A DNA stretch of 64,000 bases from an uncultured Prevotellaceae bacterium (GTDB lineage: Bacteria > Bacteroidota > Bacteroidia > Bacteroidales > Bacteroidaceae). A program made the translations under genes and the position numbers. Positions 3,523-58,398 of this stretch are shown one piece after another (the stretch's first letter is position 1; each line of letters starts with the position of its first letter). The notes under the pieces were generated by a model. It made no database searches. It had not been told where the DNA came from and saw only the letters and a program-made list of their open reading frames with translations. The DNA is taken from contig ONMN01000029.1 in assembly GCA_900318885.1 (NCBI GenBank), positions 1 to 64,000 of the forward strand, read 5' to 3'.

Positions 3523-3549
3523 AAATTCGTGAGATTCGTTAAATTCGTG
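3523..3549 (-). repeat. 9-base tandem micro-repeat in the prfC-tsaC spacer
   Basis: Three 9-base units on the plus strand: AAATTCGTG, AGATTCGTT, AAATTCGTG. They fill nearly all of the 32 bases between the prfC stop and the tsaC start. Confidence 0.8.
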
Positions 3550-3551
3550 TT

Positions 3552-5153
3552 CTAAAACTCTGATGTAAAGTGGAACTTAATGTGTTCGAAGTCCTGTTGC
3601 GCCATTGATAGCACGTAGCCCGAATCAGCAAGGAATACATCGCGTCCCTCTTTGTCCTTCGCCATGTACTGGTACTTGCGTTTCTTGAAGTTCTCCAGTT
3701 CTTTCTCGTCGTCGCTCTCAATCCAGCATGCCTTATACAGGTGTACGGGTTCCCAGCGACATTTGGCGTTGTACTCGTTCTCTAGACGGTACTGGATGAC
3801 CTCGAACTGCAGCTGACCTACGGTACCGATGATTTTGCGGTTGTTGAACTGGTTGACAAACAACTGAGCGACACCCTCGTCCATCAACTGGTCGATACCT
3901 TTTTGTAACTGCTTAGACTTCATGGGGTCGTCATTCTCGATGTACTTGAAGAGTTCAGGCGAGAAGGAAGGCAGACCACGGAAATGGAGCTGTTCACCCT
4001 CGGTGATGGTATCACCAATCTTGAACATACCCCCTGTATCGGGCAGGCCTACGATATCACCGGGCCACGCCTCGTCGATGGTACTCTTGCGCTGGGCCAT
4101 AAACTGTGTGGGACTGGAGAATCGCAATGTCTTACCCTGACGCACATGCAGATAGGGCTGGTTGCGCTGGAATTTTCCAGAGCACACTTTACAGAAGGCG
4201 ATGCACGAGCGGTGGTTGGGATCGATATTAGCGGTAATCTTAAAGATGAAACCTGTAAATTTCTGCTCTTCGGGCTGTACCATGCGCTCCTCTGCCTTCG
4301 TGGGCTTGGGACTAGGGGCTATCTCCACGAAACAATTTAAGAGTTCCTGCACACCAAAGTTGTTCAGTGCCGAACCGAAGAACACGGGAGCCACCTCAGC
4401 AGAGCGATACGTCTCGACGTCGAATTCGGGGTAGACACCGTCTACTAGTTCCAGGTCTTCGCGGAGCTTGGCGGCGTCGGTTTCCCCGACGCGTTTATCG
4501 AGGTCGGGGGAACCGACCTCCACACTGACCTTTTCAGTTACGCGCTGCTTGTCGGGCGTAAACAGGTCAAGCTTGTTTTCGTAGATATTGTACACGCCTT
4601 TGAACTTCGCACCCTGATTGATAGGCCACGACAGTGGGCGCACCTTGATTTCTAGTTCCTGTTCCAACTCGTCAAGCAAGTCGAAGGGGTCACGACCCTC
4701 ACGGTCCATCTTATTAATAAAGATGATAACGGGGGTGTTGCGCATACGACACACATTCATCAACTTACGCGTCTGCGTCTCCACGCCCTTGGCACCATCC
4801 ACCACGATAATGGCTGAGTCGACGGCCGTCAATGTGCGGTACGTATCCTCGGCAAAGTCCTGGTGACCTGGGGTATCGAGGATGTTGACCTTGTATTCGA
4901 CAGCGGGAGAACTGCCGTCCACGGGAGGCGTATAGTCGAACTCCATCACGGACGTCGACACGGAGATACCACGCTGCTTCTCGATGTCCATCCAGTCGGA
5001 AGTAGCGGTCTTCTTAATCTTGTTGTTCTTCACTGCACCAGCCACCTGTATCTGACCACCGAACAGCAGAAACTTCTCTGTCAGCGTGGTCTTACCAGCG
5101 TCTGGGTGCGAGATAATCGCAAATGTTCTTCTTCTTTCTATTTCTTGATTCAT
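3552..5153 (-). CDS. prfC: Peptide chain release factor 3 (RF3)
   Basis: 533 residues, the usual RF3 length. This GTPase recycles RF1 and RF2 from the ribosome after termination. G1 is [12 protein letters not shown] near residue 17-28, G3 is DTPGHQDF near 93, and G4 is NKMD near 146, followed by EF-Tu-like domain II and the RF3 C-terminal domain ([13 protein letters not shown]). The start overlaps the rfbD stop by 4 bases (ATGA), so translation is probably coupled. Two perfect GC-rich hairpins lie inside the coding sequence at 4474-4492 and 4500-4520; this stretch does not look longer than in relatives. Confidence 0.95.
4474..4520. repeat. Twin perfect hairpins inside prfC
   Basis: Hairpin 1: GCGTCGG (4474-4480), loop TTTCC, CCGACGC (4486-4492). 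Hairpin 2: GAGGTCGG (4500-4507), loop GGGAA, CCGACCTC (4513-4520). Seven bases separate them. Confidence 0.75.
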
Positions 5154-5998
5154 AACTTTTCAATACATTCTTTCAATGACTCCTCCCAATAAGGCACCTC
5201 GATGCCGTAGGTCTGCTTGATTTTCGTCTTGTCGAGTACGGAATAATGCGGACGGGTGGCAGGCGTCGGATATTCGGCTGTATGTAACGGACGGACGTAA
5301 CACGAGGTGATGCCCGCAAGGCGATGGATGGCCTTGGTGAAGTCGTACCACGAGATGACACCCTCGTTGGAGAAATGGTAGATACCCGGCACGATACCTT
5401 TGTTGATGGCTGTCATGATGACGCGGGCCAAATCGCGGGCGTATGTCGGTGTGCCTATCTGGTCGAAGATGACACCCAGTTCCGGTTTCTCCTTGCCCAG
5501 ACGAATCATCGTCTTTACGAAGTTGTTGCCAAAAGTCGAATACATCCATGCCGTACGGATAATCATCGAGCGCTCACACAGTTTCTGAACATTCAATTCA
5601 CCCACCAGTTTCGTCTTGCCATAGACGCTGTTGGGACAGGTGTCCTCATCCTCCGTATAGGGTGTGTGATTGGTACCATCAAACACGTAGTCAGTAGAAA
5701 TCTGAATCATCCACCCTCCACGCTTACCCATAGCATGAGCCAGATAGGCAGGTGCCTCGGCATTCAATCGCTGACAAAGTTCCTCGTTGTCCTCTGCCTT
5801 ATCGACAGCCGTATAAGCGGCACAATTGACGATGCCGTCAATGGCGTTCTCCGCTACAAAGGTCTCAATAGCAGCCTGATTGGTGATATCCAACTCAGCG
5901 ACATCCGTATTAAAATAGGTGTGCTGGGGATTCGCCTTCTCCAGCAGTTGCATCTCGTTACCTAATTGGCCGTTACAGCCAGTAATCAATATATTCAT
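5150..5998 (-). CDS. rfbD: dTDP-4-dehydrorhamnose reductase
   Basis: 282 residues. Reduces dTDP-4-keto-L-rhamnose with NADPH, the last step of dTDP-L-rhamnose synthesis for surface glycans. The N-terminal [16 protein letters not shown] is the Rossmann nucleotide-binding loop. The SDR catalytic set is visible: ISTDYVFDG with the Thr/Ser and Tyr, and VYGKTKL with the YxxxK pair near 127-131. Its stop overlaps the prfC start and its start overlaps the DUF4924 stop by one base (TAATG). rfbA lies about 17 kb away at 22824; rfbB and rfbC are not in the window. Confidence 0.93.
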
Positions 5999-6543
5999 TA
6001 TTCGAATTTCAAACCTTCTTCTTTATCCTTCTTGTAATAGTCTGAGAGCATCCCCAGAAAGGTGGTAATCTCCTTGATGGCATGCTCCGTATTGGTGCTG
6101 ATTTCCTTCTTCTGCAGGCGTAACATCATGACGCCATAGAGCGAATTGAAGCATGTCTCAATCTCGTTCTCGTCCTTATTGGCACCACGGTTGCGAAGTT
6201 CTACGATATAGGGTAACACACGGTAATATTCTGCATTGTAGAACGGAAACTTCGTCGATGCCAACAGCTGGGTATGCAGTTCGACAAGTGTCTGCATTGT
6301 TACCTTGTTGATTTGCAGGTGTCCATGTTCGCGACAGCCTTCTTGGTTCATCATACGAATAAGATGGCCATACCAGTCGGTAAGTTCTTCTTTCTGTTCG
6401 TCAGTATAGTCGAACCGCGCAATATACTCCTTACGGATGCGCGTCAGCGAACAGTCAAAAGCCCTGATGATATTCTCTACCTGCCACATATACAGCAGAT
6501 ATTCGGCAATATTGGTCTTTCGTAATTCTTGTGAGATAAACAT
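5998..6543 (-). CDS. DUF4924 family protein
   Basis: 181 residues beginning MFISQELRKTNIAEYLLYMW, which I recognise as the Bacteroidetes-specific DUF4924 family. It is predicted mostly helical, soluble, and without signal peptide or membrane segment. Function is unknown. It sits second in the minus-strand run and overlaps rfbD by one base, so it is cotranscribed with rfbD, prfC and tsaC. The 36-base spacer to the upstream exporter is made of 8-base micro-repeats. Confidence 0.75.
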   Translation of the reverse strand: MFISQELRKTNIAEYLLYMWQVENIIRAFDCSLTRIRKEYIARFDYTDEQKEELTDWYGHLIRMMNQEGCREHGHLQINKVTMQTLVELHTQLLASTKFPFYNAEYYRVLPYIVELRNRGANKDENEIETCFNSLYGVMMLRLQKKEISTNTEHAIKEITTFLGMLSDYYKKDKEEGLKFE

Positions 6544-6552
6544 TTTCCTTGG

Positions 6553-6580
6553 TCGTTATGATGTTATAACGTTGTTATGT
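6553..6580 (-). repeat. 8-base tandem micro-repeat before DUF4924
   Basis: On the minus strand the units are ACATAACA, ACGTTATA, ACATCATA and a partial ACGACC. It belongs with the CGTAATAA-type octamers at 38709, 43646 and 54246. Confidence 0.65.
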
Positions 6581-7245
6581 TAAAAGAATCTGAAAAGGTT
6601 GGTCACTGTACCGAACAGTGAAATAACAGAGAATAACGTCACCACTGCTCCGATGACCTGATTGATGATGCGGATGCCGTGGTCGTCGAAGATGGTGCGC
6701 ACTTTATCCACCAGCCATGACAGACCATACCACCACAGCAGTGCTCCTCCAATGATGCTTGCAAAGCCCACCATCATCTCGAACGGATGGTCGGGAATGA
6801 CAAAGGCAAACTGTGCAAACAGTGCCATGAAAAGGAAGATAATCAGTGGGTTGGAGAATGTGACCAAGAAGGCCGTCCAGATGTTGTACCACAGTGACCC
6901 TTTCTGTTGTCCGGACTGGTGCATGTTCTTTGTCGGGTCTATGCGCCACGTATAGATACCGAAGCCCAACAACAGCACACTACCGATAATTTGCAGATAG
7001 AACTTGTTCTGGTCATTGTTGATGAAATCCATGACAAATGCCATACCGAAGCCCGTGATGCCGGCATAGATGATGTCACTGATGGAAGCGCCAATGCCTG
7101 TGGCAAGCCCATACCAGCGTCCTTTGTTCAATGTGCGCTGTACGCAAAGGATGCCTACCGGTCCCATGGGTGCTGATGCAATCATGCCTATTAGCATGCC
7201 CTTGAATACCAAATCTACGATATTTATATGTATCGGAAATGCCAT
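6580..7245 (-). CDS. LysE/RhtB family exporter
   Basis: 221 residues with about six membrane segments. The family exports amino acids or related metabolites across the inner membrane. The N-terminal signature GMLIGMIASAPMGPVGILC is the conserved LysE/RhtB start with its Pro-Gly motif, followed by ATGIGASISDIIYAG. The substrate cannot be read from sequence. It is first in the minus-strand operon to the ClC gene. Its TACCTTTG element ends only 8 bases before the ATG, so the transcript should be almost leaderless. The start fits the family because the conserved signature begins about 15 residues in. Confidence 0.85.
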   Translation of the reverse strand: MAFPIHINIVDLVFKGMLIGMIASAPMGPVGILCVQRTLNKGRWYGLATGIGASISDIIYAGITGFGMAFVMDFINNDQNKFYLQIIGSVLLLGFGIYTWRIDPTKNMHQSGQQKGSLWYNIWTAFLVTFSNPLIIFLFMALFAQFAFVIPDHPFEMMVGFASIIGGALLWWYGLSWLVDKVRTIFDDHGIRIINQVIGAVVTLFSVISLFGTVTNLFRFF

Positions 7246-18064: not shown

Positions 18065-18211
18065 AGGAAAAAAAGTGAACTGACCAAACATCAGCCACTT
18101 TTTTAAATCCTTTTTAGGGATAAAGTATGGGAGAATTGGAAAAAAAATTGTATCTTTGACCATAGTCAAGATAGGCTTCACCTCGGAAATAAAAGAAAAA
18201 TGCATTTTTTC

Positions 18212-18242
18212 TTTGTATTTCGCTCGGTTTGCACTATCTTTG
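18212..18242 (+). promoter_or_regulatory. Promoter of fmt
   Basis: TTTG (18212-18215), 19 bases, TATCTTTG (18235-18242). A second plus-strand TATCTTTG at 18151-18158 has no good -33 element. Confidence 0.8.
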
Positions 18243-18263
18243 CAGCATTAATCGAGAAGGACA

Positions 18264-19235
18264 ATGAAGAAGACAGACTTGAGAATTGTGTTTATGGGTA
18301 CGCCGGAGTTTGCGGTGGAGACGCTGCAGGCGCTGGTGGAGAACGAGTATAACGTGGTGGCAGTGGTGACACAGCCCGATAAACCCGTGGGACGTCACCA
18401 GACAGAGATGCAGCCGTCACAGGTGAAGCAGTATGCTGTGGCGCACGGCTTACCCGTATTGCAACCTGAGAAGATGAAGGATCCTGCGTTTGTGGAACAG
18501 CTTCGGTCGTACGAAGCCAACCTGCAGGTGGTCGTGGCGTTCAGGATGTTGCCGGAAGTAGTGTGGGCCATGCCTGAGTACGGCACGTTTAACGTCCATG
18601 CGGCCCTGCTGCCCCAGTATCGTGGTGCAGCCCCCATCAACTGGGCCGTCATCAATGGCGAGACGGAGACGGGTGTGACAACATTCTTCCTGGATCACGA
18701 TATCGACACGGGGCGTATCATCATGAAGAAACCGTTTGCCATTCCTGACGATGCCGACGTGGAGTATGTGTATGACGGACTGATGCATCTGGGTGCCGAG
18801 CTGTGTCTGGAAACGCTGGACGCCATCATCGCGGCAGACGGCCATCCCGAAACGGTGGCGCAAGACACTGTGCTCGATGGTTTAGCCATCAAGTCCGCCC
18901 CCAAGATTTTTAAGGAGACCTGCGAGATAGACTGGACGAAAAATGCCAAGCAGGTGTACGACTTCGTGCGCGGATTGAGTCCCGTGCCAGGAGCGTGGAC
19001 TACACTGGTTGCTGCCGACGGCAGGGAAACGGTGCTGAAGGTGTGGAAGACGCGCAAGACCGGTAAGCAGGGTAGGGGCGTCGGCACGATCAGTATTGAG
19101 GGAAAGACACTGTGTATCTCGGCACAGGACGAATTGCTGGAGATCGTGGAACTGCAGTTGGCAGGCAAAAAACGCATGCTGGCCCGCGACTTCCTGAACG
19201 GCATGAAGGACGTGGAATCGTGTCGCGTAAAATAA
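18264..19235 (+). CDS. fmt: Methionyl-tRNA formyltransferase
   Basis: 323 residues. Transfers a formyl group from 10-formyl-tetrahydrofolate to initiator Met-tRNA. RIVFMGTPEFAVETLQAL opens the Rossmann domain. NVHAALLPQYRGAAPINWAVINGE holds the folate-binding loop with the conserved Asn and His, and FFLDHDIDTGRI follows with the catalytic Asp region. The C-terminal OB-fold (about 210-315) binds tRNA. Length is normal. It starts 22 bases after an exact-match promoter and precedes rpe by 175 bases. Confidence 0.95.
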   Translation: MKKTDLRIVFMGTPEFAVETLQALVENEYNVVAVVTQPDKPVGRHQTEMQPSQVKQYAVAHGLPVLQPEKMKDPAFVEQLRSYEANLQVVVAFRMLPEVVWAMPEYGTFNVHAALLPQYRGAAPINWAVINGETETGVTTFFLDHDIDTGRIIMKKPFAIPDDADVEYVYDGLMHLGAELCLETLDAIIAADGHPETVAQDTVLDGLAIKSAPKIFKETCEIDWTKNAKQVYDFVRGLSPVPGAWTTLVAADGRETVLKVWKTRKTGKQGRGVGTISIEGKTLCISAQDELLEIVELQLAGKKRMLARDFLNGMKDVESCRVK

Positions 19236-19410: not shown

Positions 19411-20061
19411 ATGGCTACAATGGTTTCACCGTCGCTCCTTGCAGCTGACTTCCTGCATCTGGACAGCGAACTGGAAATGATTAACCGCAGTGAGGCCGAT
19501 TGGCTTCATCTGGATGTGATGGATGGCGTGTTCGTACCCAACATCTCTTTCGGATTCCCTGTGCTTGAGGCTGTGGCCAAGAAGTGCAAGAAACCCCTCG
19601 ACGTTCATTACATGATTGTCCATCCGGAGCAGTATATCCAACAGACTGCCAAGTTGGGCGCGATGATGATGAACGTCCACGTGGAGGCTTGTACCCATCT
19701 GCATCGTACCGTGCAGGAGATTCATCAGGCAGGCATGAAGGCCGGCGTGACGCTGAATCCTGCGTCGCCTGTGTCATTGCTGGAAGATATCATCTGTGAC
19801 GTCGATATGGTGTTGCTGATGAGTGTGAATCCCGGTTTTGGTGGACAGAAGTTCATCGAGAACACCATTCAGAAGGCACAGCGACTGCGGAAACTCATCG
19901 ACGAAAGCGGCTCGAAGGCACTGATAGAGGTGGACGGCGGCGTACAGAACGAGACGGCCCCACGATTGGTTAAGGCCGGTGTAGACGTGCTGGTGGCAGG
20001 AAGCTATGTGTTTCATAGCCCCACGCCAGAGCAGACTATCCACGAACTCAGGGCTCTCTAG
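19411..20061 (+). CDS. rpe: Ribulose-phosphate 3-epimerase
   Basis: 216 residues, the usual size. Interconverts ribulose-5-phosphate and xylulose-5-phosphate in the pentose phosphate pathway, and would feed pentoses from arabinan or xylan into glycolysis. VSPSLLAADFLHL opens the TIM barrel. HLDVMDGVFVPNISFG carries the metal-binding His and catalytic Asp, HYMIVHPEQYI the second metal His, and SVNPGFGGQKF the phosphate loop. IEVDGGVQ has the second catalytic Asp. Its TAG stop lies inside a 9-base micro-repeat. Confidence 0.95.
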   Translation: MATMVSPSLLAADFLHLDSELEMINRSEADWLHLDVMDGVFVPNISFGFPVLEAVAKKCKKPLDVHYMIVHPEQYIQQTAKLGAMMMNVHVEACTHLHRTVQEIHQAGMKAGVTLNPASPVSLLEDIICDVDMVLLMSVNPGFGGQKFIENTIQKAQRLRKLIDESGSKALIEVDGGVQNETAPRLVKAGVDVLVAGSYVFHSPTPEQTIHELRAL

Positions 20062-20081
20062 ATACTCTAGATGTTCTAGAG
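20056..20081. repeat. 9-base micro-repeat holding the stops of two convergent genes
   Basis: CTCTAGATA, CTCTAGATG, TTCTAGAG. The TAG of rpe (20059-20061) and, on the other strand, the TAG of the sigma factor (20076-20078) both lie in it. The outer arms can pair, so it may also act as a weak terminator. Confidence 0.7.
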
Positions 20082-20675
20082 TTCCATGCTTAGCTGGATT
20101 TCGTGTTCTTTGGCCATACGGCGCATGTTGATGAGGGCATAGCGCATACGGCCAAGGGATGTGTTGATACTGACACCAGTGGTCTCAGCAATCTCTTTGA
20201 ACGACATTTCCTGATAATAGCGCATATGTACCACTTCGCGTTGTGGAGCGGGCAGCGAGTCCATGATATGGCGTACGTCGCGAAGAATCTGGTCGTTGAC
20301 AAACTCGTTCTCGCGATTGAGGTCCATCACGCCGTCACTCTTCAGCTTACTCAGGTCGTTGTCGATGGTAGGTTCTATGACATGAACGTTCTTTTGCTGA
20401 CGATAGGTGTCCATGATGATGTTATGGGCAATACGCGTCAGCCAGAACGCGAACTTGCCGGAGTCGGTGTACTTGCCTTCCTGCAATTTGGTGATAGCCT
20501 TGACAAACGTCTCTTGGAACACGTCGTTAGCTTGCTCGGGGTCGCGGACCACGAACAAAATGTAATCGTAGAGCTTTTTTTGATTGCGAGCTAATAACTC
20601 ATCAAATGCCCTATTGTCTCCTCCTGCATACTGCAAGGCCAACTTTTCGTCGGTCATGCTTGCATAATTCTTCAT
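20076..20675 (-). CDS. ECF-type RNA polymerase sigma factor
   Basis: 199 residues from the ATG at 20675 (MKNYASMTDEKLALQYAGG); a longer in-frame reading upstream is leader sequence. Region 2 includes YDYILFVVRDPEQANDVFQETF and FAFWLTRIAHNIIMD. Region 4 includes LPAPQREVVHMRYYQEMSFKEIAE, an HTH that binds the -35 region. No adjacent anti-sigma factor (FecR-type) is seen, so it is not a classic SusC-coupled sigma. It resembles stand-alone Bacteroidetes sigma factors. Its promoter element TACTTTTG lies about 90 bases upstream. Confidence 0.88.
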   Translation of the reverse strand: MKNYASMTDEKLALQYAGGDNRAFDELLARNQKKLYDYILFVVRDPEQANDVFQETFVKAITKLQEGKYTDSGKFAFWLTRIAHNIIMDTYRQQKNVHVIEPTIDNDLSKLKSDGVMDLNRENEFVNDQILRDVRHIMDSLPAPQREVVHMRYYQEMSFKEIAETTGVSINTSLGRMRYALINMRRMAKEHEIQLSMEL

Positions 20676-35684: not shown

Positions 35685-35715
35685 ATCTTATATCTTACCT
35701 TTTATTTCTTACCTC
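35685..35715 (-). repeat. 7-base tandem micro-repeat between lptE and the TPR gene
   Basis: Minus strand: AGAGGTA, AGAAATA, AAAGGTA, AGATATA, AGAT then ATGG. The last unit merges with the start codon at 35684. Confidence 0.8.
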
Positions 35716-35719
35716 TATA

Positions 35720-38700: not shown

Positions 38701-38708
38701 AATTATGT

Positions 38709-38755
38709 TGATGTTTCGTTATTTCGTTATAACGGGATTACGTTATTTCGTTATT
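38709..38755 (-). repeat. 8-base tandem micro-repeat between rlmN and pdxA
   Basis: Minus strand: CGAAATAA, CGTAATCC, CGTTATAA, CGAAATAA, CGAAACAT. The first units code the RlmN end NNEIT and its stop codon. Confidence 0.85.
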
Positions 38756-39832: not shown

Positions 39833-39837
39833 GGGTG

Positions 39838-39845
39838 CAAAGGTA
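39838..39845 (-). promoter_or_regulatory. -7 element of rlmN-pdxA
   Basis: TACCTTTG on the minus strand, 5 bases before ATG 39832; the element lies at the edge of the 40-base direct repeat. Confidence 0.72.
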
Positions 39846-39952
39846 CGAATAAGTGAGCGAAAAACCAAATTTATTTGGGTTTTTCCGAACGGAAGTGCCT
39901 TCACCAAGGGAGAAAGGTACGAATAAGTGAGCGAAAAACCAAATTTATTTGG
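39839..39952. repeat. Two 40-base direct copies of a hairpin-bearing promoter element
   Basis: Identical 40-base blocks at 39839-39878 and 39913-39952 (74-base period). Each holds AAAGGTACGAATAAGTGAGC followed by a dyad, CCAAAT-TTATTTGG. The first copy supplies part of the rlmN promoter; the right arm of the second supplies the TTTG of the plus-strand promoter. Confidence 0.9.
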
Positions 39953-39979
39953 TGTTTCGTAGAAAAAATAGTATCTTTG
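39948..39979 (+). promoter_or_regulatory. Promoter of the giant fusion gene
   Basis: TTTG (39948-39951, inside the repeat hairpin), 20 bases, TATCTTTG (39972-39979), ATG 40007. Confidence 0.8.
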
Positions 39980-40006: not shown

Positions 40007-43000
40007 ATGATACAGAAAACAGATTGCTTTTTAGCCTGTCACGACGAGCAACAGACCGCATCTTTGGCCAGTCGGTTGCAGCAAAATGCGTCGGTGAAAG
40101 GTGTTTTCTTCCTCCAGGATATTCCTATGTTGAGCAGTGCCATGCTGATGCATATTGCCGAGAAGGCTACTGCCGACTATGTGTTACTCCAACTCAAGCC
40201 TGTTGCCATCACGCTTGGTGCAGGAGCTTTGGAGCGTATGATGGCTGCTGCTGCCGATACGGGTGCCGTGATGGCGTATGCAGACAGGTTTGAGGTGAAA
40301 AATGGTGTCGTGGAACGTCATCCCGTGATTGACTATCAGGAAGGTTCGTTGCGCGATGATTTCGATTTCGGCTCGCTGGTGCTTATCCGTACGTCGCTCA
40401 TCCATAAGTATGCTACCACCGATCGTGATGCCGATTATCGCTATGCCGGCTTCTACGATTTTCGTCTCTTCCTGAGTCGCGAGGGCAGCCTCTTTCATCT
40501 GAATGAATATCTCTATACCGAAGAGGAACTCGACCTTCGCGCCTCTGGTGAGAAACAGTTTGATTACGTGAATCCAGCCAATCGCGAGGTGCAAATCGAG
40601 ATGGAACAAGCCTGTACGGCCCATCTGCGTGAGGTGGGTGCACTGGTGGATACTACTCAGTATCAAGAGATAGACTTCAACGAGCAGGAGTTCGACGTCG
40701 AGGCTTCCGTTGTCATTCCCGTCTTCAATCGTGCCAAAACCATCAAGGATGCTGTCGAGAGTGCCCTGTCGCAGAAGGCTTCGTTCAAGTATAATGTCAT
40801 CGTGGTGGATAACCACTCTACGGACGGCACCTCCGACATCTTGTCCAGTATGTTGCTAAGCCACGGCGACAAGCTCCATGTCATTACCCCTGAACGCACA
40901 GACCTTGGTATTGGCGGATGCTGGAACGAAGCCATCTATAGCGAGCATTGTGGACGCTTTGCCGTTCAGCTTGATTCTGACGACCTCTATTCCTCGCCCA
41001 AGACATTGCAGACCGTTGTCGATGCCTTCTACAAACAGAAGGCTGCGATGGTTATCGGCTCTTACCGTATGTGCGATTTTGAATTGAACACCCTGCCTCC
41101 AGGACTCATTGCGCATAAGGAATGGACTGACGAGAACGGACCTAATAATGCGTTAAGAATCAATGGTTTGGGTGCTCCTCGTGCATTCTTTACTCCAATT
41201 CTGAGAAGCATCGGTTTTCCCAATACGTCGTATGGCGAGGACTATGCTTTGGGCTTGCAATTTTCGCGTCATTATCGCATCGGCCGTATCTTTACGGAGC
41301 TCTATCTCTGTCGCCGTTGGGGAGGCAATTCAGATGCAGCTTTGTCTGTCGAAAAGGTCAATGCCAACAACCTTTATAAAGACCGTCTGCGTACCATCGA
41401 ACTGAAAGCTCGTCAGCGCGTACTGCAAGGGAAGGACGATTCCCTGACGCTTTCACCCATTGTCCGCTTCTTCCATCGTCAGTTGCAGACATGGCCTGAG
41501 GTGCAACAGCGTTATCGCGACCTGCAACAGGTGGAGACGCGCGAACTCATGACTGATACGATTACCCTACAGGTGCAGTGGAATCCTGCCCGTATAGGTT
41601 CTACGGGAGCAAAAATTGACCCCAAATCCATCGCCGAGCGTCCTTGTTTCCTGTGTGCCAAGAATCGACCTCAGGAGCAGATGCATCGTGTGGTTGACGG
41701 CAAATACGAACTGCTGGTCAATCCGTTCCCCATTCTGCCTGTTCATTTTACGGTGCCCACGCTGAAACACCAGCCCCAGCGCATCCTGCCCATGTTTGGC
41801 GAGATGCTCAATGTGGCAGAAAAGGAACCTGCTGTTACCATATTATATAATGGTCCGCATTGCGGCGCGTCGGCTCCTGATCATGCTCATCTGCAGTCTG
41901 TGAGTACGGGTCATCTGCCCTTACAGAAGGCTTGGCAACGGTTGAGCCGTAACCTTGTCGAAGTGGTAAAAGACGGCGACGATGATGGTATTTTCCAAGT
42001 TGTAGATTATCCTGCTGCAGCCTTCGTGATTGTCAGTCATAGCCAAAGTGTTGGTGAGCGTTTGTTCCGTCGTCTCTACGATGCGCTACCGCCTGCCGAC
42101 GACGGTACAGAGCCCATGATGAATGTCATCGTATGGCGTTCTGACGATGTGTTGCTCAGCGTGGTGCTGCCTCGTCGCAAGCATCGTCCTGCGTGTTATA
42201 CCGCTGAGGGTGACAACCAATACATCATAAGTCCTGGAGCAGTCGATATGGGTGGACTCATCATCACTCCTCGTGAACAGGATTTCCGTCGCGTGACTCC
42301 CGAATTGATTCTCGATATCTATCGCGAACTGTCGCTGACCCCAGAACAGATGCAGCAGGTCGTCGAGCGTGTAAAGAGTGAAGCCTTTAACGTTCAACGT
42401 TCAATGTTCAACGTTCAACGTCTCAAGGCCCAGCCGAATGTCTGTGTTGGCATTGTCAGCGGTCAGAAGATTGAGTTCTCGCTCAATGCACCCTATACCG
42501 CTAAGGGCGAGACCCTTGAAGGAAGGCAGGTGGTGGAGTTTTCCGAGGGTGGCATTCTCTGGCGTGGCAATCAGTATCGTGAACTCACCTTCACGCCCTC
42601 CAGTGCCGACGCTTCGTTCTCGCTGTTCGACGTCACCATTGGTGTCAATTTCCATTGGGAACGTAAGGAAACGCAGACCTTCCTGGGTACCCTGCGACTT
42701 GTGGTAGAGTCCGACCAGATTACGGCCATCAATGAATTGCCCGTCGAGAAGTATCTCGCCTCCGTCATTTCCAGTGAGATGAAGGCTACGGCGGGTCTTG
42801 AACTGTTGAAGGCCCATGCCGTCATCAGTCGTTCGTGGCTTCTGGCACAGATGCGTCGTCGTGAACAGGCTAGTGAACATAAGGACGGTTTCTTCTCGTT
42901 TATCAAGAAGGATGACGAACTCATCCGCTGGTACGACCGCGAGGATCATACCATTTTTGATGTCTGTGCCGATGACCATTGCCAGCGCTATCAGGGTATT

Positions 43001-43642
43001 ACCAAACAGACCAGCAAGAATGTGGAGCAGGCGTTGAAGGCCACGCGTGGACAGATTCTCTGCTATGGCGACGACATCTGTGACGCACGCTTTTCGAAGT
43101 GTTGTGGAGGCATCACCGAGGAGTTCCAGTATTGCTGGGAGGACACCCCCAAACCCTATCTCGTCAGTGTTGTCGACCCCTATTGCAACACCAATGACAA
43201 GGCCATTCTCTCGCAGGTGCTCAACGATTACGACCAGGAAACCAACGATTTCTATCGCTGGACGGTAGAATACACAGTGGACGAGATTTCCGATCTCATC
43301 AACGAAAAACTCAAGGACGACTTCGGACGTATCACTGACCTCATCCCGTTGGAGCGTGGCAAGAGCGGTCGCATCTGGAAACTGAAGATCGTGGGTACAA
43401 AAAAGACCTTCACCATCGGTAAGGAACTCGAAATCCGCCGTGCCCTCAGTGAGAGCCACCTCTACAGCTCCGCTTTCGACGTTGAAAAGACGGCTAATGG
43501 TTTCCGTCTTCATGGCAAGGGCTGGGGCCACGGTGTAGGTCTCTGCCAAATTGGTGCAGCCGTCATGGGCCAGCAAGGTTTCAAGTACGACGAAATCCTA
43601 CTCCATTATTATCGCAACGCAGAAATTAAACGTATTTACTAA
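40007..43642 (+). CDS. Giant fusion: glycosyltransferase GT2, DUF4922 nucleotidyltransferase-like domain, SpoIID/LytB domain
   Basis: 1211 residues from ATG 40007; a longer upstream reading runs through the promoter. Residues 1-220: a degenerate GT2-like half. About 230-470: a complete GT2 domain with [12 protein letters not shown] and the DxD motif in [11 protein letters not shown]. About 515-800: DUF4922, a HIT/GalT-like fold with [12 protein letters not shown] and the H-x-H-x-Q motif in PDHAHLQSV. About 810-1211: SpoIID/LytB with [15 protein letters not shown] and [17 protein letters not shown] linker of 7-base repeats ([12 protein letters not shown]) joins the last two. No signal peptide, so probably cytosolic. 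The next gene is AmpG-like; a cell-wall glycan or sugar-nucleotide pathway is inferred, not shown. Confidence 0.83.
42391..42421 (+). repeat. 7-base tandem repeat encoding the linker of the fusion protein
   Basis: CGTTCAA, CGTTCAA, TGTTCAA, CGTTCAA, then CGT. It is read in frame between the DUF4922 and SpoIID domains and looks like the micro-repeats that elsewhere fill intergenic spacers. Confidence 0.88.
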
Positions 43643-43645: not shown

Positions 43646-43677
43646 CGTCATAACGGTATCACGTTATAACGTAATAA
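43646..43677 (+). repeat. 8-base tandem micro-repeat before ampG-like gene
   Basis: CGTCATAA, CGGTATCA, CGTTATAA, CGTAATAA. It begins 3 bases after the stop of the fusion gene and ends 13 bases before the next ATG. Confidence 0.88.
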
Positions 43678-43690: not shown

Positions 43691-44977
43691 ATGAACAAAC
43701 GAAATCCCTGGGCTTGGGTGCCCACACTTTATTTCGCCGAAGGCGTACCCTACGTCGCTGTGATGACCATCTCGCTCATCATGTACAAACGCTTGGGCCT
43801 CAGCAATACCGACATCACGCTCTACACCTCGTGGCTCTATCTGCCGTGGGTCATCAAACCCCTGTGGAGTCCCTTTGTCGATATGCTCCGCACCAAACGC
43901 TGGTGGATTATCACCATGCAACTGCTCATCGGTGCAGCTCTCGCTGGTGTGGCTTTCACCATTCCTGGGCCATGGTGGTTGCAGGGCTCGTTATGTTTCT
44001 TCTGGTTGATGGCGTTCTCCAGTGCCACCCACGACATCGCTGCAGACGGTTTCTATATGCTAGGCCTCGACCAGCACGAACAAGCGTATTTCGTAGGTAT
44101 CCGCTCCACGTTCTATCGTATTGCTACTATCTTCTCCTCAGGACTGCTTGTCGGTTTGGCAGGTGCCTTGCAGGTCATCACGCGCAACATCCGCTACTCG
44201 TGGAGCCTTGTGTTCTACCTGATGGCAGGACTCTTTATTGCCCTGTGGCTATACCACAGCTGGGCACTGCCACGTCCCTCTGAGGATGGAGAAAAGATGC
44301 AGAAAACGGTGAGCGGCATCCTCAACGAATTCCGCCAGACGCTGGTCACCTTCTTCCAGAAGCCACAGGTCTGGGCGGGCATCTGTTTTATGCTGTTCTA
44401 TCGTATGCCAGAGGGACTGTTGGCAAAGGTCAGTGCTCTCTTCCTCGTCGATGCAGGTCATAATGGTGGTCTTGGACTCTCAGATGGCGAATATGGTCTC
44501 GTTCAGGGTACTGTAGGTGTCATCGGACTGACGCTGGGTGGCATCCTCGGTGGTATTGCTGCCAGCCGCGACGGACTCAAACGCTGGTTGTGGCCTATGG
44601 TGTTGGCAATCACGTTGCCTGACCTCGTCTATGTCTACCTATCATATGTCCTGCCCAATAGTCTGTTTGTCATCAACGTCTGCGTCTTCATCGAGCAGTT
44701 CGGCTATGGCTTTGGATTCTCAGCCTATATGCTCTACCTTATTTATTATAGTCAGGGCGAGCACAAGACTTCCCACTATGCCCTCTGCACGGCTTTCATG
44801 GCACTGTCGATGATGATTCCTGGTCTCTTTGCCGGAGCCCTGCAGGAGTCCGTGGGTTATCGGGCTTTCTTCCTCATTGTCGTTGCAGCCTGCACGCTGA
44901 CTTACATAGTCACGTGGTTCCTCAATATTGATCCCGAGTTTGGCAAGAAGGCAGAGGAGGATTCCTCTCAAGAATAG
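43691..44977 (+). CDS. AmpG-like MFS transporter
   Basis: 428 residues with about twelve membrane helices. The opening PWAWVPTLYFAEGVPYVAV and the motif SWLYLPWVIKPLWSPFVD are typical of AmpG-type MFS permeases, which import GlcNAc-anhydroMurNAc muropeptides. HDIAADGFYMLGL near residue 115 is also AmpG-like. It is cotranscribed with the fusion gene (octamer-repeat spacer). This pairs a muropeptide-type importer with a SpoIID domain, which acts on peptidoglycan glycan in spore formers. The true substrate is inferred; MurNAc, anhydro-muropeptides or another disaccharide are possible. Confidence 0.8.
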   Translation: MNKRNPWAWVPTLYFAEGVPYVAVMTISLIMYKRLGLSNTDITLYTSWLYLPWVIKPLWSPFVDMLRTKRWWIITMQLLIGAALAGVAFTIPGPWWLQGSLCFFWLMAFSSATHDIAADGFYMLGLDQHEQAYFVGIRSTFYRIATIFSSGLLVGLAGALQVITRNIRYSWSLVFYLMAGLFIALWLYHSWALPRPSEDGEKMQKTVSGILNEFRQTLVTFFQKPQVWAGICFMLFYRMPEGLLAKVSALFLVDAGHNGGLGLSDGEYGLVQGTVGVIGLTLGGILGGIAASRDGLKRWLWPMVLAITLPDLVYVYLSYVLPNSLFVINVCVFIEQFGYGFGFSAYMLYLIYYSQGEHKTSHYALCTAFMALSMMIPGLFAGALQESVGYRAFFLIVVAACTLTYIVTWFLNIDPEFGKKAEEDSSQE

Positions 44978-49742: not shown

Positions 49743-50498
49743 TTAATCATCCTGTGGAATGGGCAGGGCGGCGAGGGCCTCGGCTGCCGACTTGATATTC
49801 GTATTGATGGTGTCTTCGCGAATCTTGCCGTCGCGCAGATTGATGTTACGCGAGGAAAACTCGGCAATTTCAGGATTGTGGGTCACGAAAATGATGGTGT
49901 GGCCCTTACGGTAGAGTTCCTGAAACAGTACCAGCATCTCAAACGATGTACGCGTGTCTAGGTTACCAGTGGCCTCGTCAGCCAACAGCACGGCGGGTTC
50001 GTTGACCAGCGCACGGGCAATGGCCACGCGCTGCATCTGACCACCCGACATCTCGTTGGACTTATGTTCCAGACGGTCACCAAGACCTACGGCCTGCAGG
50101 GCTTTGATGGCGGCCTCGCGACGTTGCTGGGCATTGTATTTCGAGTTATACATCAGAGGCAACTCCACATTCTCTACGGCTGTGGTCTTCGCCAGCAGGT
50201 TGTAGTTCTGGAATACGAAGCCGATCTTCTGGTTGCGCAGGTGGGCACGCTGGGTTTTCGACATCGTGCGAACGCTGATGCCGTCCAGAAAGTATTCGCC
50301 CGACGTAGGCGTATCCAGACAGCCCAATTGGTTGAGCAGCGTCGACTTGCCTGAGCCCGAAGTTCCCTGGATGGTGACAAACTCGCCCTCGTAGATTTTG
50401 AACGAGACACCACGCAGCGCCTTCACCGTCTCAGAGCCTACCTGGAAGTAGCGCTTGACGTTCTGCAACTCGATGACTACTTTTCTTTCTTCATTCAT
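49743..50498 (-). CDS. MacB-type ABC transporter ATPase
   Basis: 251 residues from ATG 50498; a GTG 9 bases earlier is possible. Walker A is GTSGSGKSTLLNQLG, the Q-loop is FVFQNYNLL, the signature is MSGGQMQRVAIARAL and Walker B is AVLLADEAT, followed by the H-loop FVTHNPE. It belongs to the LolD/MacB group. It lies between the adaptor and permease genes; the 40-base 5' spacer consists of 7-base repeats that run into the start codon. Confidence 0.93.
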   Translation of the reverse strand: MNEERKVVIELQNVKRYFQVGSETVKALRGVSFKIYEGEFVTIQGTSGSGKSTLLNQLGCLDTPTSGEYFLDGISVRTMSKTQRAHLRNQKIGFVFQNYNLLAKTTAVENVELPLMYNSKYNAQQRREAAIKALQAVGLGDRLEHKSNEMSGGQMQRVAIARALVNEPAVLLADEATGNLDTRTSFEMLVLFQELYRKGHTIIFVTHNPEIAEFSSRNINLRDGKIREDTINTNIKSAAEALAALPIPQDD

Positions 50499-50547
50499 AC
50501 ATCTCACTTCTTACATCTAACATCTTACATCAGCCTTCTTACTTCTT
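50497..50547 (-). repeat. 7-base tandem micro-repeat between adaptor and ABC ATPase genes
   Basis: Minus strand: GAAGTAA (holding the adaptor stop codon), GAAGGCT, GATGTAA, GATGTTA, GATGTAA, GAAGTGA, GATGTATG. The final unit contains the ATG at 50498. Confidence 0.87.
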
Positions 50548-51735
50548 CGGCTGCTGATTACCGCCCTGTTGGTTTCTGTTGTTACGCGGACGTGGCATGA
50601 AGGGGTTCTGGGCCTGCTGGCCTGCTTCCTCTTCACCACCGCTCAGTGTGAAGTCGACAAGCACCTCGGTGCCTTCGCTGATGCCACTGATAATCTCGGT
50701 GAGCATGCCGTTGGTGGTTCCTACCTGTACGGCATGAGCCTTGAAGACGTTACCCTCCAATGTCCATACCTTCGTGGGCGCTTCGACATCCTCAATGCTC
50801 TGACCCTCTGAGAGCAGGGCCTCGGTGGGCATGAATCGCAGCGCCTTGGCAGGAGCGGCGAGCACGTCGTTCTTCTCAAGGGTGAAGATAGTAACGTTGG
50901 CTGTGAGACCGGGCTTCAGCTTCAGGTCGTTGTTGGGGGCAGAGATGACCACCTCGTAGGTCACCACGTTGCTCTCCGTCGTTGCCTGCTGGCGTACTTG
51001 CGTCACCTGACCCTCAAACTTATCGTCAGGATAAGCATCGACGGTGAACGACACGCGCTGACCTTCCTTCACACCACCGATGTCGGCCTCGTCGATATCG
51101 GCAATGACGCGCATGTCTGTCAGGTCTTGGGCGATGGTGAACAGCTCAGGGGTGTTGAACGACGCAGCAACGGTCTGACCTTCCTCAACGCTCTTCGACA
51201 GCACGACGCCGTCGATAGGCGAGGTGATGGTGGCGTAGCCCAAATTGGTCTGTGCCTTCTGCACGTTCTCACGGCTCGAACGTACCGTCTGCTGGGCTTT
51301 GTCGAACGACAGGCGGGCATTCTCGTAGTCGTTGGCCGATATGAGACCCTTGTCGAACAATGTCTTGTAACGGTTGTAATTGGCGGTCTCGTAGTTCAGC
51401 GTGCTCTGCGCACTCGACAGGTCGGCCTTGGCACGGTTCAGCTCGCTGATGAGGTTGGTCTTGTCGAGTTCGGCAATAATCTGACCTTTCTTCACGATGG
51501 AGTTGTAGTCGACATAGAGTTTCGACACGATACCTGACACCTGTGTACCTACGGTGACGGAGGTAACGGGCTCGATGGTTCCCGTAGCAGTAATCGACGT
51601 GCTGATGTTCTGCTTCTCTACCTTGGCAGTAGAAAACTCTGCCTTTTGTTCTTTTTTGCCGCCTGAACACATCCGGACGACGAGGGCTACGACCACTACG
51701 GCGGCTATGCCCATCCAAACTTTCTTGTTCTTCAT
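50539..51735 (-). CDS. MacA-type periplasmic adaptor (HlyD/RND family)
   Basis: 398 residues. One N-terminal membrane helix (VWMGIAAVVVVALVVRMCSG), then the lipoyl half-motifs GTIEPVTSVTVGTQVSGIV and GYATITSPIDGVVLSKSV around a coiled-coil hairpin (about 90-165), then the beta-barrel and membrane-proximal domains. The end (RPRNNRNQQGGNQQPKK) is a Gln/Asn-rich tail. It links the MacB-type transporter to TolC. It lies 22 bases after the TolC gene and is followed by the ATPase. Confidence 0.92.
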   Translation of the reverse strand: MKNKKVWMGIAAVVVVALVVRMCSGGKKEQKAEFSTAKVEKQNISTSITATGTIEPVTSVTVGTQVSGIVSKLYVDYNSIVKKGQIIAELDKTNLISELNRAKADLSSAQSTLNYETANYNRYKTLFDKGLISANDYENARLSFDKAQQTVRSSRENVQKAQTNLGYATITSPIDGVVLSKSVEEGQTVAASFNTPELFTIAQDLTDMRVIADIDEADIGGVKEGQRVSFTVDAYPDDKFEGQVTQVRQQATTESNVVTYEVVISAPNNDLKLKPGLTANVTIFTLEKNDVLAAPAKALRFMPTEALLSEGQSIEDVEAPTKVWTLEGNVFKAHAVQVGTTNGMLTEIISGISEGTEVLVDFTLSGGEEEAGQQAQNPFMPRPRNNRNQQGGNQQPKK

Positions 51736-54245: not shown

Positions 54246-54277
54246 CGTAATAACGTAATACCGAAATAACGTAATAA
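54246..54277 (+). repeat. 8-base tandem micro-repeat before fabG
   Basis: CGTAATAA, CGTAATAC, CGAAATAA, CGTAATAA, in the 74-base spacer between tetR and fabG. Confidence 0.9.
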
Positions 54278-54301
54278 CAAATAATAAATTAAAGTAAAAT
54301 T

Positions 54302-54955
54302 ATGGGATTATTAGAAGGAAAGACAGCGCTGATTACTGGTGCTGCACGCGGTATCGGAAAGGCTATCGCACTGAAGTATGCCTCTGAGGGCTGTAACATC
54401 GCATTCACCGACCTCGAGATCAACCTCGACACGGAGAAGGAAATCGCTGCTGACCGAAGAGGTGGTGAAGGCCGTAAAGGAGGAGTTTGGAAGCATCGAT
54501 ATTCTGGTGAATAACGCCGGTATCACCAAGGACGGACTGATGCTCCGTATGACCGAGCAGCAGTGGGACGCTGTTATCGCCGTCAATCTTAAATCGGCAT
54601 TCAACTTCATCCATGCTTGCGTGCCTGTTATGATGCGTCAGCGTGGCGGTAGCATCATCAATATGGCCTCTGTCGTAGGTGTTCACGGTAATGCCGGTCA
54701 GGCTAACTACGCCGCTTCGAAGGCTGGTCTCATTGCCCTCGCCAAGAGTATCGCTCAGGAGATGGGTCCCAAGGGCAGACCGCTATGACTGCAGCACTGC
54801 CTGAGGAGGTTCGCAACGAGTGGAAGCAGAAGATTCCCCTCCGTCGCGGTGGTCAGGTCGAGGATATCGCTAACGTTGCCACTTTCCTGGCTTCCGACCT
54901 CTCGAGCTATGTCAGCGGACAGGTCATCCAGGTTGATGGCGGCATGAACATGTAA
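54302..54955 (+). pseudogene. fabG: 3-oxoacyl-ACP reductase FabG, broken by two internal deletions
   Basis: The frame opens normally with MGLLEGKTALITGAARGIGKAI (Rossmann GxxxGxG). After about DTEKEIAA (54450) homology jumps to another frame at EEVVKAVKEEFGSIDILVNNAG, so residues before it are missing (about 59 bases if the gene was 248 codons). It continues through the catalytic region (SIINMASVVG; NYAASKAG) to EMGPKG near 54776. There a second loss of about 34 bases restores the original frame for TAALPEEVR...DGGMNM. The Ser-Tyr-Lys residues remain, but no single frame gives the protein. Either a real pseudogene or an assembly error; fabG is normally essential. Confidence 0.82.
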
Positions 54956-55613: not shown

Positions 55614-55626
55614 CGCTAAGGTTACG

Positions 55627-55793: not shown

Positions 55794-55817
55794 GTTTGTT
55801 AGGGGCAAGGTAAAGTT

Positions 55818-55901: not shown

Positions 55902-55929
55902 GTTTTTGCAACCGCCCGTAAGGAGTTCT

Positions 55930-57366: not shown

Positions 57367-57374
57367 AGTGGGTA

Positions 57375-57382
57375 CAAAATTA
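57375..57382 (-). promoter_or_regulatory. -7 element of radA
   Basis: TAATTTTG on the minus strand, 8 bases before ATG 57366. Confidence 0.6.
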
Positions 57383-57414
57383 CGCAAAATCTTGCAAAAC
57401 TGCAAATTATTTCG

Positions 57415-57422
57415 TAATTTTG
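57415..57422 (+). promoter_or_regulatory. -7 element of the lipoprotein-TPR gene pair
   Basis: TAATTTTG, 10 bases before ATG 57433; divergent from the radA promoter 33 bases away. Confidence 0.6.
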
Positions 57423-57432
57423 CAAGCGAATT

Positions 57433-58398
57433 ATGAAGAAATCGACGATAATCATGATAGTCTGCGTGCTGTTGATGGCAGCATGCGGACAGTCGTATGA
57501 AGAAACCAAGCGTCAGAAAGGGTTGAGTCAGCGCGAGGCGATGAGGAAGGATTCGGCTGCCCTGAAGGTGGCTGTGATGCCGACGCTGGACTGTCTGCCG
57601 CTGTATGTGGCGGAGCATTACCAGCTGTTTGACACGCTGCGCGGTGGTGTGCGCCTGAAATTCTATATGGCACAGATGGACTGTGACACGGCGTTGCAGC
57701 GTGGTAGGGTAGAGGGTGCGATGACCGACTTGGTAAGGGCCAAACGCATGGAGCGGCAAGGTATGAAGCTGCGCTATCCTGCCGTTACCGGTGCCTACTG
57801 GCAACTGATAGCCAACCGTAATGCCCGTGTGAAGCAGCTGAAGCAGCTGGACGACAAGATGGTGGCCATGACGCGTTTCTCGGCCACCGACTTGCTAACC
57901 GACCGCATGATAGACTCGGTGAAGTTGGATAAGGACCGCGTGTATAAGGTACAGATAAACGATGTCAGTGTGCGTCTGCTGATGTTGCAGAACAACGAGA
58001 TGGACGTGCTCTGGATGATGGAACCTCAGGCCACTGCTGCGCGTATGATGAAGAACGGCGTGGTGTATGACAGCCGGAAGGATAGTTTGCAGCTGGGTGT
58101 GCTCGTCTTCCGTGAACAGGAGATGCGGCATCCGGAACGTGCCGAGCAACTGAAACTCTTTATGCAGGCCTATGACCAGGCTTGCGACAGCATCAACAAA
58201 TATGGTGTGCGCCACTATCGCGACATCATTGTCGAGCGGTGTCAGGTGAAGAAGAATATGCTGGACTCGTTGCCCGATAAAATAAAATATGAACGCGCGC
58301 GAGGACCACGCGAACGGGATATTGCCCTCGTGGAAAAATGGCTGGGCGTGAAGAAAGAGGTGAGTGGTAAGAAGCAAGAGGTAAGAGGCAAGAAGTAG
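57433..58398 (+). CDS. Lipoprotein resembling ABC substrate-binding proteins (NMT1/SsuA type)
   Basis: 321 residues. Lipobox MAAC near residue 16-19. The body looks like a periplasmic binding protein fold: LKVAVMPTLDCLPLYVAEHYQLFDTL, GRVEGAMTDLVRAKRM and DKMVAMTRFSATDLLTDRMI have the order of NMT1/THI5-type binding proteins. No ABC permease or ATPase is nearby, so it may act as a sensor or belong to a distant transporter. Its last residues (KKEVSGKKQEVRGKK) are written by a 7-base repeat that ends 2 bases before the next gene. Confidence 0.72.
   Translation: MKKSTIIMIVCVLLMAACGQSYEETKRQKGLSQREAMRKDSAALKVAVMPTLDCLPLYVAEHYQLFDTLRGGVRLKFYMAQMDCDTALQRGRVEGAMTDLVRAKRMERQGMKLRYPAVTGAYWQLIANRNARVKQLKQLDDKMVAMTRFSATDLLTDRMIDSVKLDKDRVYKVQINDVSVRLLMLQNNEMDVLWMMEPQATAARMMKNGVVYDSRKDSLQLGVLVFREQEMRHPERAEQLKLFMQAYDQACDSINKYGVRHYRDIIVERCQVKKNMLDSLPDKIKYERARGPRERDIALVEKWLGVKKEVSGKKQEVRGKK
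58356..58397 (+). repeat. 7-base tandem micro-repeat at the junction of two genes
   Basis: AGAGGTG, AGTGGTA, AGAAGCA, AGAGGTA, AGAGGCA, AGAAGTA, then GG and ATG. It codes the C-terminus and stop of the lipoprotein and ends directly before the start codon at 58400. Confidence 0.92.

What the first reader, a model, noticed from the sequence alone, without database searches (positions are those of the whole stretch)
3523..58397. Operon spacers are built from 7-, 8- or 9-base tandem micro-repeats that run into the next start codon
Seen in the sequence: octamers of CGTAATAA type at 54246, 43646, 38709 and 6553; heptamers of AGAGGTA/GATGTAA type at 58356, 50497 and 35685; nonamers at 3523 and 20056. 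All but the 20056 site lie between two genes on the same strand, right before the downstream start. The heptamers end at or in the ATG. Units vary in sequence but keep exact period and phase. This suggests a lineage-wide process (slippage or selection) that writes spacers, or a purine-rich ribosome loading or standby site in a phylum that hardly uses Shine-Dalgarno pairing. I know of no named element of this kind.
Basis: seen in the sequence. Interest (0 to 1): 0.78.

Follow-up and report, generated by a model that had tools for sequence, protein, structure and literature searches.

The report
Shifting seven-letter repeats after genes
In this bacterium many short gaps between genes are filled with tandem copies of a 7- or 8-letter DNA word that often sits right at the end of the upstream gene, and close relatives can carry different words in the same gap, which looks more like fast-changing filler DNA than a start signal for translation.

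Summary
In 826 kb sampled from this Prevotella-like genome, 308 same-strand spacers hold 32 heptamer, 10 octamer and 3 nonamer arrays (shuffle means 0.0); two same-genus genomes (G016, G040) hold none of periods 7-9 in 200 kb each.

Arrays are not anchored to start codons. Where the spacer leaves room, 24 of 52 abut the upstream stop (10.9 expected), 4 of 52 the start (11.5 expected), 24 neither. Convergent spacers carry them too.

Orthologous junctions tell most. prfC->tsaC has no gap (-1 or 0 nt) in 7 of 15 genomes with both genes in place, yet holds nonamers here, ATTTATC in G007 and TTAAGAA in G056. Identical units recur at unrelated loci more than gene-end seeds predict (4.7% of pairs, null 0.36%), so unit families seem to spread within genomes.

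Best reading: dispersed, turning-over heptamer/octamer satellites, tolerated at gene ends, mostly in the orientation rich in stop codons. Heptamer repeats upstream of starts are published (TAACTGA, PMC4679880): a new variant of a known kind. The ribosome standby-site reading is not supported.

The parts
3520..3551 (-). prfC -> tsaC spacer, nonamer units (ACGAATTTA type), array 3523-3549
   Evidence: 14/2000 shuffles; the orthologous junction carries ATTTATC (G007), TTAAGAA (G056), or no gap at all
6544..6579 (-). degenerate octamer-like spacer (CATAACAA/CGTTATAA) after the LysE/RhtB-type exporter gene 6580-7245
   Evidence: not significant alone (283/2000), not reported by TRF; G007 has a 3-nt spacer here
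20056..20080 (.). nonamer CTCTAGATA, 2.8 copies, over the 14-bp gap between convergent genes 19420-20061 (+) and 20076-20675 (-)
   Evidence: 1/2000
35685..35719 (-). heptamer spacer (AGAGGTA/AGATATA type)
   Evidence: 166/2000 alone; ortholog in G007 carries AGTGAAA heptamers, G056 and G067 show no array
38701..38755 (-). rlmN -> pdxA spacer, octamers (CGTTATAA/CGAAATAA), running into the last codons of rlmN
   Evidence: 14/2000
43646..43677 (+). octamers (CGTTATAA type) between gene 40007-43642 and the AmpG-like gene 43691-44977
   Evidence: 69/2000; octamer-like also in G007 and G056, genes overlap in G067
50498..50538 (-). HlyD-like -> ABC ATPase spacer, heptamers (GATGTAA type) ending at the ATG
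   Evidence: orthologous junction in 30 genomes, own included; 12/2000
54246..54278 (+). octamers CGTAATAA
   Evidence: 3/2000; no octamers at the orthologous junction in G007 or G056
58355..58397 (+). heptamers AAGAGGT inside the C-terminal coding end of 57454-58398, reaching the stop codon
   Evidence: 66/2000
   Evidence: searches (score 60; shared with G007, different in G056, absent in G067), domains

Best explanation
These are dispersed, turning-over heptamer/octamer satellite arrays. A small set of unit families per genome (here AAGANGT, AACRTTG, AGTGAAN, AATTGAN and the octamer CGNAATAA) grows by unit slippage and is copied to many loci. Copies persist mainly where they do little harm: at or after a stop codon, between tightly packed same-strand genes or convergent genes, less often upstream of promoters, mostly in the orientation that puts stop codons on the mRNA strand. 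The array adds to or replaces the spacer, sometimes supplies the upstream gene's last codons and stop, and can later be lost or overwritten by another family. Shown: excess, period 7/8, preference for stops over starts, unit sharing between loci, different families at orthologous junctions. Inferred: growth by slippage, copying between loci, purifying selection as the filter, order of gain and loss. The copying mechanism is not identified.
For: Excess and period: intergenic heptamers 52 in 90 kb against 38 deep inside called genes in 737 kb; octamers 17 intergenic, 0 inside. Stop preference: 24 of 52 (10.9 expected); with one array per spacer 20 of 43 (9.5 expected), start 4 of 43 (10.1 expected). 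Sense units carry a stop codon in 41 of 52 arrays, antisense 17 of 52; for arrays starting after the upstream stop 25 of 34 against 11 of 34. Stop density in arrays 112/kb sense, 47/kb antisense; in array-free spacers of G000 54 and 47. Dispersal: identical-unit pairs 5.1% among 40 heptamer arrays, or 31 of 666 pairs (4.7%) with one array per spacer, gene-end seed null mean 0.36%, maximum 2.1% of 200 draws. Different families at orthologous junctions. Variants propagate: 147 of 257 mismatches fall in one column per array, null 97.6, maximum 112 of 2000. Also in G061, a one-contig 99%-complete assembly.
Against: No donor-recipient pair, target duplication or enzyme was found. Few arrays share flanking DNA (GCTACCGC-type words near 4 of 118). 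Units of neighbouring arrays are not significantly more alike than expected (21 of 157 pairs, permutation mean 16.4, p = 0.14). Near-identical sharing (at most one difference) is as high between G000 and G007 as within G000 (21.9% and 16.5%), so families may be old and common to close species rather than recently spread. The hlyD->ABC heptamers resemble the native gene end AAGAAGTAA, which fits local seeding there. Nearly half of the roomy arrays (24 of 52) abut neither stop nor start; convergent stop anchoring is weak (10 of 16, 6.7 expected). No strain-level data. Octamers at two junctions are shared by three species.
Confidence: 0.6

Rival explanations
1. Purely local slippage: each array grows from the 7-8 nt around its own stop codon, and families look alike only because gene ends look alike.
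For: hlyD->ABC: the native end AAGAAGTAA resembles the array unit in G000/G007; arrays often include the last sense codon and stop; heptamer preference is reported for many bacteria (PMC4679880 passage).
Against: Unit sharing is about 13 times what gene-end seeds give. At prfC->tsaC the units (ATTTATC, TTAAGAA, ACGAATTTA) do not resemble, by eye, the gap-free junction of relatives.
Confidence: 0.2
2. Ribosome loading or standby site: purine-rich periodic spacers recruit ribosomes to the downstream gene in a phylum that rarely uses Shine-Dalgarno pairing.
For: Many arrays in short spacers end 0-7 nt before the ATG; mean sense purine fraction 0.63 against 0.55 in array-free spacers; two of three heptamer stretches folded are predicted unstructured, the third has a weak stem; a translational role was proposed for TAACTGA repeats (PMC4679880).
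Against: No start anchoring where room exists (4 of 52, 11.5 expected); present in convergent spacers; absent or different in many orthologs; none in the G016 and G040 samples.
Confidence: 0.07
3. All-frame stop cassette: units of 7 or 8 with one stop codon close all three frames after a gene, protecting against read-through or stopping run-on ribosomes before the next start.
For: Sense-strand stop bias; periods that are not multiples of 3 dominate in spacers.
Against: Periods 10 and 11 would serve equally but are rare; not conserved at orthologous junctions; the bias is also expected if arrays must not extend the upstream protein, an argument MacGregor made for TAACTGA.
Confidence: 0.1
4. Remnants of a miniature transposable or palindromic element whose ends are the arrays.
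For: Inverted or paired arrays around a core (L241, L256, L347) and arrays abutting ATTTGCTACCGC or GCAACGCCACAC elements.
Against: GCTACCGC-type words near only 4 of 118 arrays, a broader form near 7, GCAACGCCAC near 2; many arrays run directly from stop to start with no core.
Confidence: 0.08

Closest known systems
TAACTGA direct repeats of marine Beggiatoaceae, Cyanobacteria and five Bacteroidetes (MacGregor 2015, PMC4679880; abstract, passages, sections 9 and 24 read)
   Same: Tandem heptamers in intergenic regions, mostly just upstream of start codons, stop codon in the forward unit, able to overlap the end of the upstream coding sequence, patchy among relatives.
   Different: There one fixed unit, related heptamers rarely or never repeated; here several unit families plus octamers per genome. 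A direct TAACTGA pair occurs in 1 of 358 fetched loci, not of the window's genome. Here the stop is favoured over the start when room exists, and the family differs between orthologous junctions.
Long simple sequence repeats with 5-11 nt units (Mrazek et al. 2007; not read, seen only as described in PMC4679880 and PMC4692102)
   Same: Heptamers the most abundant long-unit class in most genomes; polymerase-slippage origin proposed.
   Different: Unit families shared among many loci, orientation and stop preference are not in the descriptions I saw.
GGGAATC / GGGGAYT heptamers of Xanthomonas and Nostoc (PMC4692102, passages read)
   Same: Dispersed intergenic heptamer arrays, varying in length and sequence between relatives, some as inverted repeats.
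   Different: Those are G-rich quadruplex formers; here the main units are A/T-rich.

Membership tests
Long-unit simple sequence repeats (heptamer SSR) | Head-to-tail units of 5-11 nt in excess of chance | tested here: met
   32 heptamer arrays in 308 co-directional spacers, shuffle mean 0.0
Long-unit simple sequence repeats (heptamer SSR) | Heptamers the commonest class | tested here: met
   lag 7 is 101 of 155 arrays at lags 5-12 in the G000 sample, lag 8 is 17, lag 9 is 16
Long-unit simple sequence repeats (heptamer SSR) | Copy number changes by whole units between strains | not testable with these tools
   one genome per species held; between species, G000 and G007 have 40 and 26 nt at hlyD->ABC, a difference of two heptamers
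TAACTGA repeats | Unit TAACTGA | tested here: not met
   direct pair in 1 of 358 loci (L061, another genome)
TAACTGA repeats | Located just upstream of start codons | tested here: inconclusive
   true of many arrays in short spacers, not where the spacer leaves room
Miniature inverted-repeat transposable element | Defined ends with terminal inverted repeats shared by copies | tested here: not met
   no 9-letter flank word beside more than 5 of 118 arrays, the commonest being promoter-like; only 25 nt on each side examined, target duplications not tested
Ribosome standby/loading site | Fixed position relative to start codons | tested here: not met
   4 of 52 near the start, 11.5 expected

The most novel reading that the evidence does not exclude
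This genus has an active, non-transposon system that writes 7- or 8-nt unit arrays into stop/start junctions genome-wide, copying units between unrelated loci, so that operon spacing is continuously created and overwritten with species-specific words.
Probability: 0.15. Interest if true: 0.8.

Novelty: new variant of a known kind. Interest (0 to 1): 0.5.

Why it matters
It suggests that spacing inside bacterial operons can be made from satellite DNA and can change between species while gene order stays. A gene pair without a gap in some relatives has a 30-40 nt repeat gap in others, which bears on how far translational coupling matters in Bacteroidales. It offers a natural system, including a single-contig genome (G061), for asking why slippage favours 7-nt units and how a unit comes to lie at unrelated loci. 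It also warns that C-terminal tails and intergenic 'motifs' in such genomes may be repeat DNA rather than functional sequence.

Tried and rejected
Hypervariable single position per unit (a '6 templated + 1 untemplated base' writer): mismatches concentrate in one column, but that column does not hold three or more bases more often than chance (20 of 53, null 24.6), so propagation of one variant is enough.

Local spreading between neighbouring spacers: not supported (p = 0.14).

Strict clade restriction: the AATTGAN family is patchy on a pdxA tree of 30 genomes (8 changes, 92 of 500 shuffles as low); the octamer family is clustered (3 changes, 0 of 500). The thresholds of 10 and 5 hits were mine, hits were not corrected for the backward control, and it is one gene tree.

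Backward controls: the backward-read word is itself common in some genomes (G008 1 hit against 132 control, G004 20 against 90, G015 58 against 141, G022 15 against 65; G061 0 against 73, G059 1 against 67). I read that as other words being in use there; it means these patterns do not measure total array load.

RNA structure: 3 of 4 octamer spacers fold into a small hairpin better than most shuffles (6, 11 and 12 of 200 as good), the fourth does not (113 of 200). Of three heptamer stretches two are flat at 0 kcal/mol and one has a weak stem (30 of 200); the nonamer spacer is flat. No common structure.

Census limits: gene calls are home-made (hexamer model), thresholds were chosen by me, spacers limited to 10-600 nt (15-600), samples of 71-826 kb per genome; no genome was read whole. 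Lag-5 counts come from runs of N and are not used; one search's 129 arrays included N runs, so the flank count was redone on 118 N-free arrays. In one search the neighbour gene was not found next to prfC in 15 of 30 loci and not next to pdxA in 13 of 30 (loci carry about 1.5 kb of flank); these were left out of the junction counts. Readings by eye are marked.

Papers: PMC4679880 abstract, passages, sections 9 and 24; PMC4692102 and PMC4060949 passages only; all others only as search listings. That I found no report for Prevotella rests on the searches (open-licence PMC only).
Full report
Where it is. The window is contig C67 of a 3.34-Mb, 132-contig assembly, 85.7% complete. Its pdxA is closest to assemblies titled Prevotellaceae, Bacteroidales or Prevotella (84% to RUG11543, 79% to RUG10553, 81-82% to roe-deer abomasum Prevotella), so I call it Prevotella-like. 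Gene calls come from a home-made hexamer caller. Gene names rest on Pfam/NCBIfam: prfC (3552-5153), tsaC (2902-3519), rlmN (38738-39832), pdxA (37528-38700), an HlyD-type gene (50539-51735), an ABC ATPase (49743-50498), an AmpG-type transporter (43691-44977).

The sites. All nine are present. Taken singly they are modest: 7 of 9 are matched by 69 or fewer of 2000 shuffles, while 35685 (166) and 6553 (283, best lag 11 rather than 8) are not significant on their own. It encodes [12 protein letters not shown] between annotated domains, is shared with G007, differs in G056 and is absent in G067.

Genome-wide excess. In 41 sequences (450 kb), at a stricter threshold, 146 co-directional spacers hold 11 heptamer, 3 octamer and 2 nonamer arrays, with shuffle means of 0.0. 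In 826 kb, 308 co-directional spacers hold 32, 10 and 3; 54 convergent ones 5, 1 and 0; 64 divergent ones 3, 0 and 0. Counting all places, heptamers number 101: 52 intergenic, 7 across gene edges, 3 inside genes within 45 nt of the start, 1 within 45 nt of the stop, 38 deeper inside called genes. Octamers number 17, all intergenic; nonamers 16, 5 of them intergenic. Per kb, heptamers are about eleven times denser between genes than deep inside them. The excess is not confined to co-directional spacers: heptamers per kb are 0.96 co-directional, 0.58 convergent, 0.20 divergent.

Relatives. Samples of G007, G056, G067 and G061 have the arrays; G010 has a few; G016 and G040 have none at lags 7-9 in 200 kb each. 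Eight Pedobacter/Mucilaginibacter/Daejeonella loci have a few (co-directional: 2 heptamer, 2 octamer), four Bacteroides/Parabacteroides loci none in 42 co-directional spacers. Pattern counts suggest different words in different species. (AAGARGT)3 with up to 3 mismatches gives 251 hits in G000 against 58 for the backward control, 391 against 67 in G006, 0 against 2 in G002; in G008, G004, G015, G022 and G001 the control exceeds the word. AATTGAN has at least one hit in 41 of 60 genus members, the octamer CGNAATAA in 24 of 60. G061 is a single-contig, 99%-complete assembly, so binning artefacts do not explain the arrays.

Anchor. In short operon gaps an array necessarily comes near both stop and start. 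Where at least 30 nt of slack exists (six genomes, co-directional, lags 7-9), 24 of 52 arrays abut the stop (10.9 expected under uniform placement), 4 of 52 abut the start (11.5 expected), 24 abut neither, and 14 of 52 overlap the stop codon itself. With one array per spacer it is 20 of 43 (9.5 expected) and 4 of 43 (10.1 expected); G000 alone 12 of 23 (5.5) and 2 of 23 (5.8); G061 alone 5 of 14 (2.4) and 1 of 14 (2.6). Of 16 arrays in roomy convergent spacers, 10 abut a stop (6.7 expected), a weak excess. Avoidance of promoters and leaders can explain the shortage near starts; that is inference.

Orientation. Consensus units carry a stop codon on the sense strand in 41 of 52 co-directional 7/8-mer arrays of G000 and on the antisense strand in 17 of 52. 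For arrays that begin after the upstream stop it is 25 of 34 and 11 of 34 (four genomes). Stop triplets run at 112/kb sense and 47/kb antisense in arrays, 54 and 47 in array-free spacers of G000. Sense purine excess is not special: 39 of 52 arrays and 150 of 213 array-free spacers exceed one half.

Orthologous junctions. HlyD -> ABC in 30 genomes (own included): 20 of 30 have gaps of -6 to 17 nt, measured to the position homologous to the own start. By eye 4 of 30 carry arrays: G000 and G007 (GATGTAA), G071 (AGTTGAN around a core) and G067 (ACGAATTAT with an inverted half). prfC -> tsaC: the neighbour was found in 15 of 30 loci (own included). Seven of 15 have gaps of -1 or 0. Arrays were called in G000 (9-mer), G056 (TTAAGAA), G007 (ATTTATC) and, in a 366-nt spacer, G048; G022 looks octameric by eye but was not called. 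rlmN -> pdxA: the neighbour was found in 17 of 30; arrays called in 5 of 17 (four octamer, one heptamer), with octamers by eye in G049 and G071, and rlmN's last codons made of repeat in several. At window junctions 38700 and 43642, G000, G007 and G056 share degenerate octamers (partly by eye) that G067 lacks, so some arrays are older than these species.

Not locally seeded as a rule. Among 40 co-directional heptamer arrays of G000, 5.1% of pairs have identical units (rotation and strand allowed) and 16.5% differ by at most one base. With one array per spacer (37), 31 of 666 pairs (4.7%) are identical and 108 (16.2%) differ by at most one; random 7-mers around stop codons of the same genome give means of 0.36% and 5.2%, maxima of 2.1% and 10.8% in 200 draws. 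Against G061 identical pairs are 0; against G007 they are 4.0%, and near-identical ones 21.9%, as high as within G000. So families are shared between unrelated loci, within this genome and with a close species. Neighbouring arrays are not significantly more alike than expected. Some arrays stand beside recurrent DNA: AACRTTG arrays beside a GCAACGCCACAC palindrome, AGTGAAN arrays beside ATTTGCTACCGC, but GCTACCGC-type words lie near only 4 of 118 arrays, a broader form near 7, GCAACGCCAC near 2. How units spread is open.

Known kind. MacGregor (PMC4679880) described TAACTGA heptamers upstream of starts in Beggiatoaceae, some Cyanobacteria and five Bacteroidetes. She noted that the forward unit contains stops, so that repeats can overlap gene ends only briefly, and suggested a translational role. 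[quoted passage not shown] Rehm et al. (PMC4692102, passages) describe G-rich heptamers in Xanthomonas and Nostoc. I found no report of multi-family, stop-abutting arrays that differ between species in Prevotella in the searches, which cover open-licence PMC papers only.

Verdict. A real and strong genome feature, best read as dispersed heptamer/octamer satellites filtered by selection and found preferentially at stop codons; a new variant of a known kind. The standby-site reading is not supported.

Noticed in passing
L038 6858, 9118, 10247, 13577; L042 10608, 10676, 11575, 12249, 13918; L248 13254; L251 15222 and others (own genome, outside the window): A dispersed palindromic element, ATTGCAACGCCACAC-TCT[variable loop]AGAGAA: 17 exact copies of its 12-letter core in 826 kb, 7 of 17 inside called genes, recalling Rickettsia palindromic elements (recalled, not tested); some copies abut AACRTTG heptamer arrays.
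   Followed up: partly
window about 39832-39960 and 18140-18275: Stretches in and beside divergent spacers, about 35-120 bp of which hit tens of places in G007, G056 and G067; promoter-like TACCTTTGCA words are the commonest 12-mers of spacers.
   Followed up: no
L224 (G067) and L141 (G066) spacers: C-rich inverted repeats (CCCCAACCCCTCCC ... GGGAGGGGTTGGGG type) at operon junctions that are tight in several relatives.
   Followed up: no
L241 18329-18525, L256 9705-9845, L033 345-564, L347: Pairs of arrays around a core of roughly 60-180 bp, the first three in opposite orientation, at least one with a promoter-like word inside.
   Followed up: partly
window 54302-54788: The gene after the 54246 octamers is called as two overlapping short frames (54302-54514 and 54462-54788), while its first part is 94% identical in G007; the reading frame looks interrupted in this assembly.
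   Followed up: no
window 42389-42426: Strong heptamer array inside a multidomain gene (glycosyltransferase/DUF4922/SpoIID domains), kept in frame and shared with G007.
   Followed up: partly
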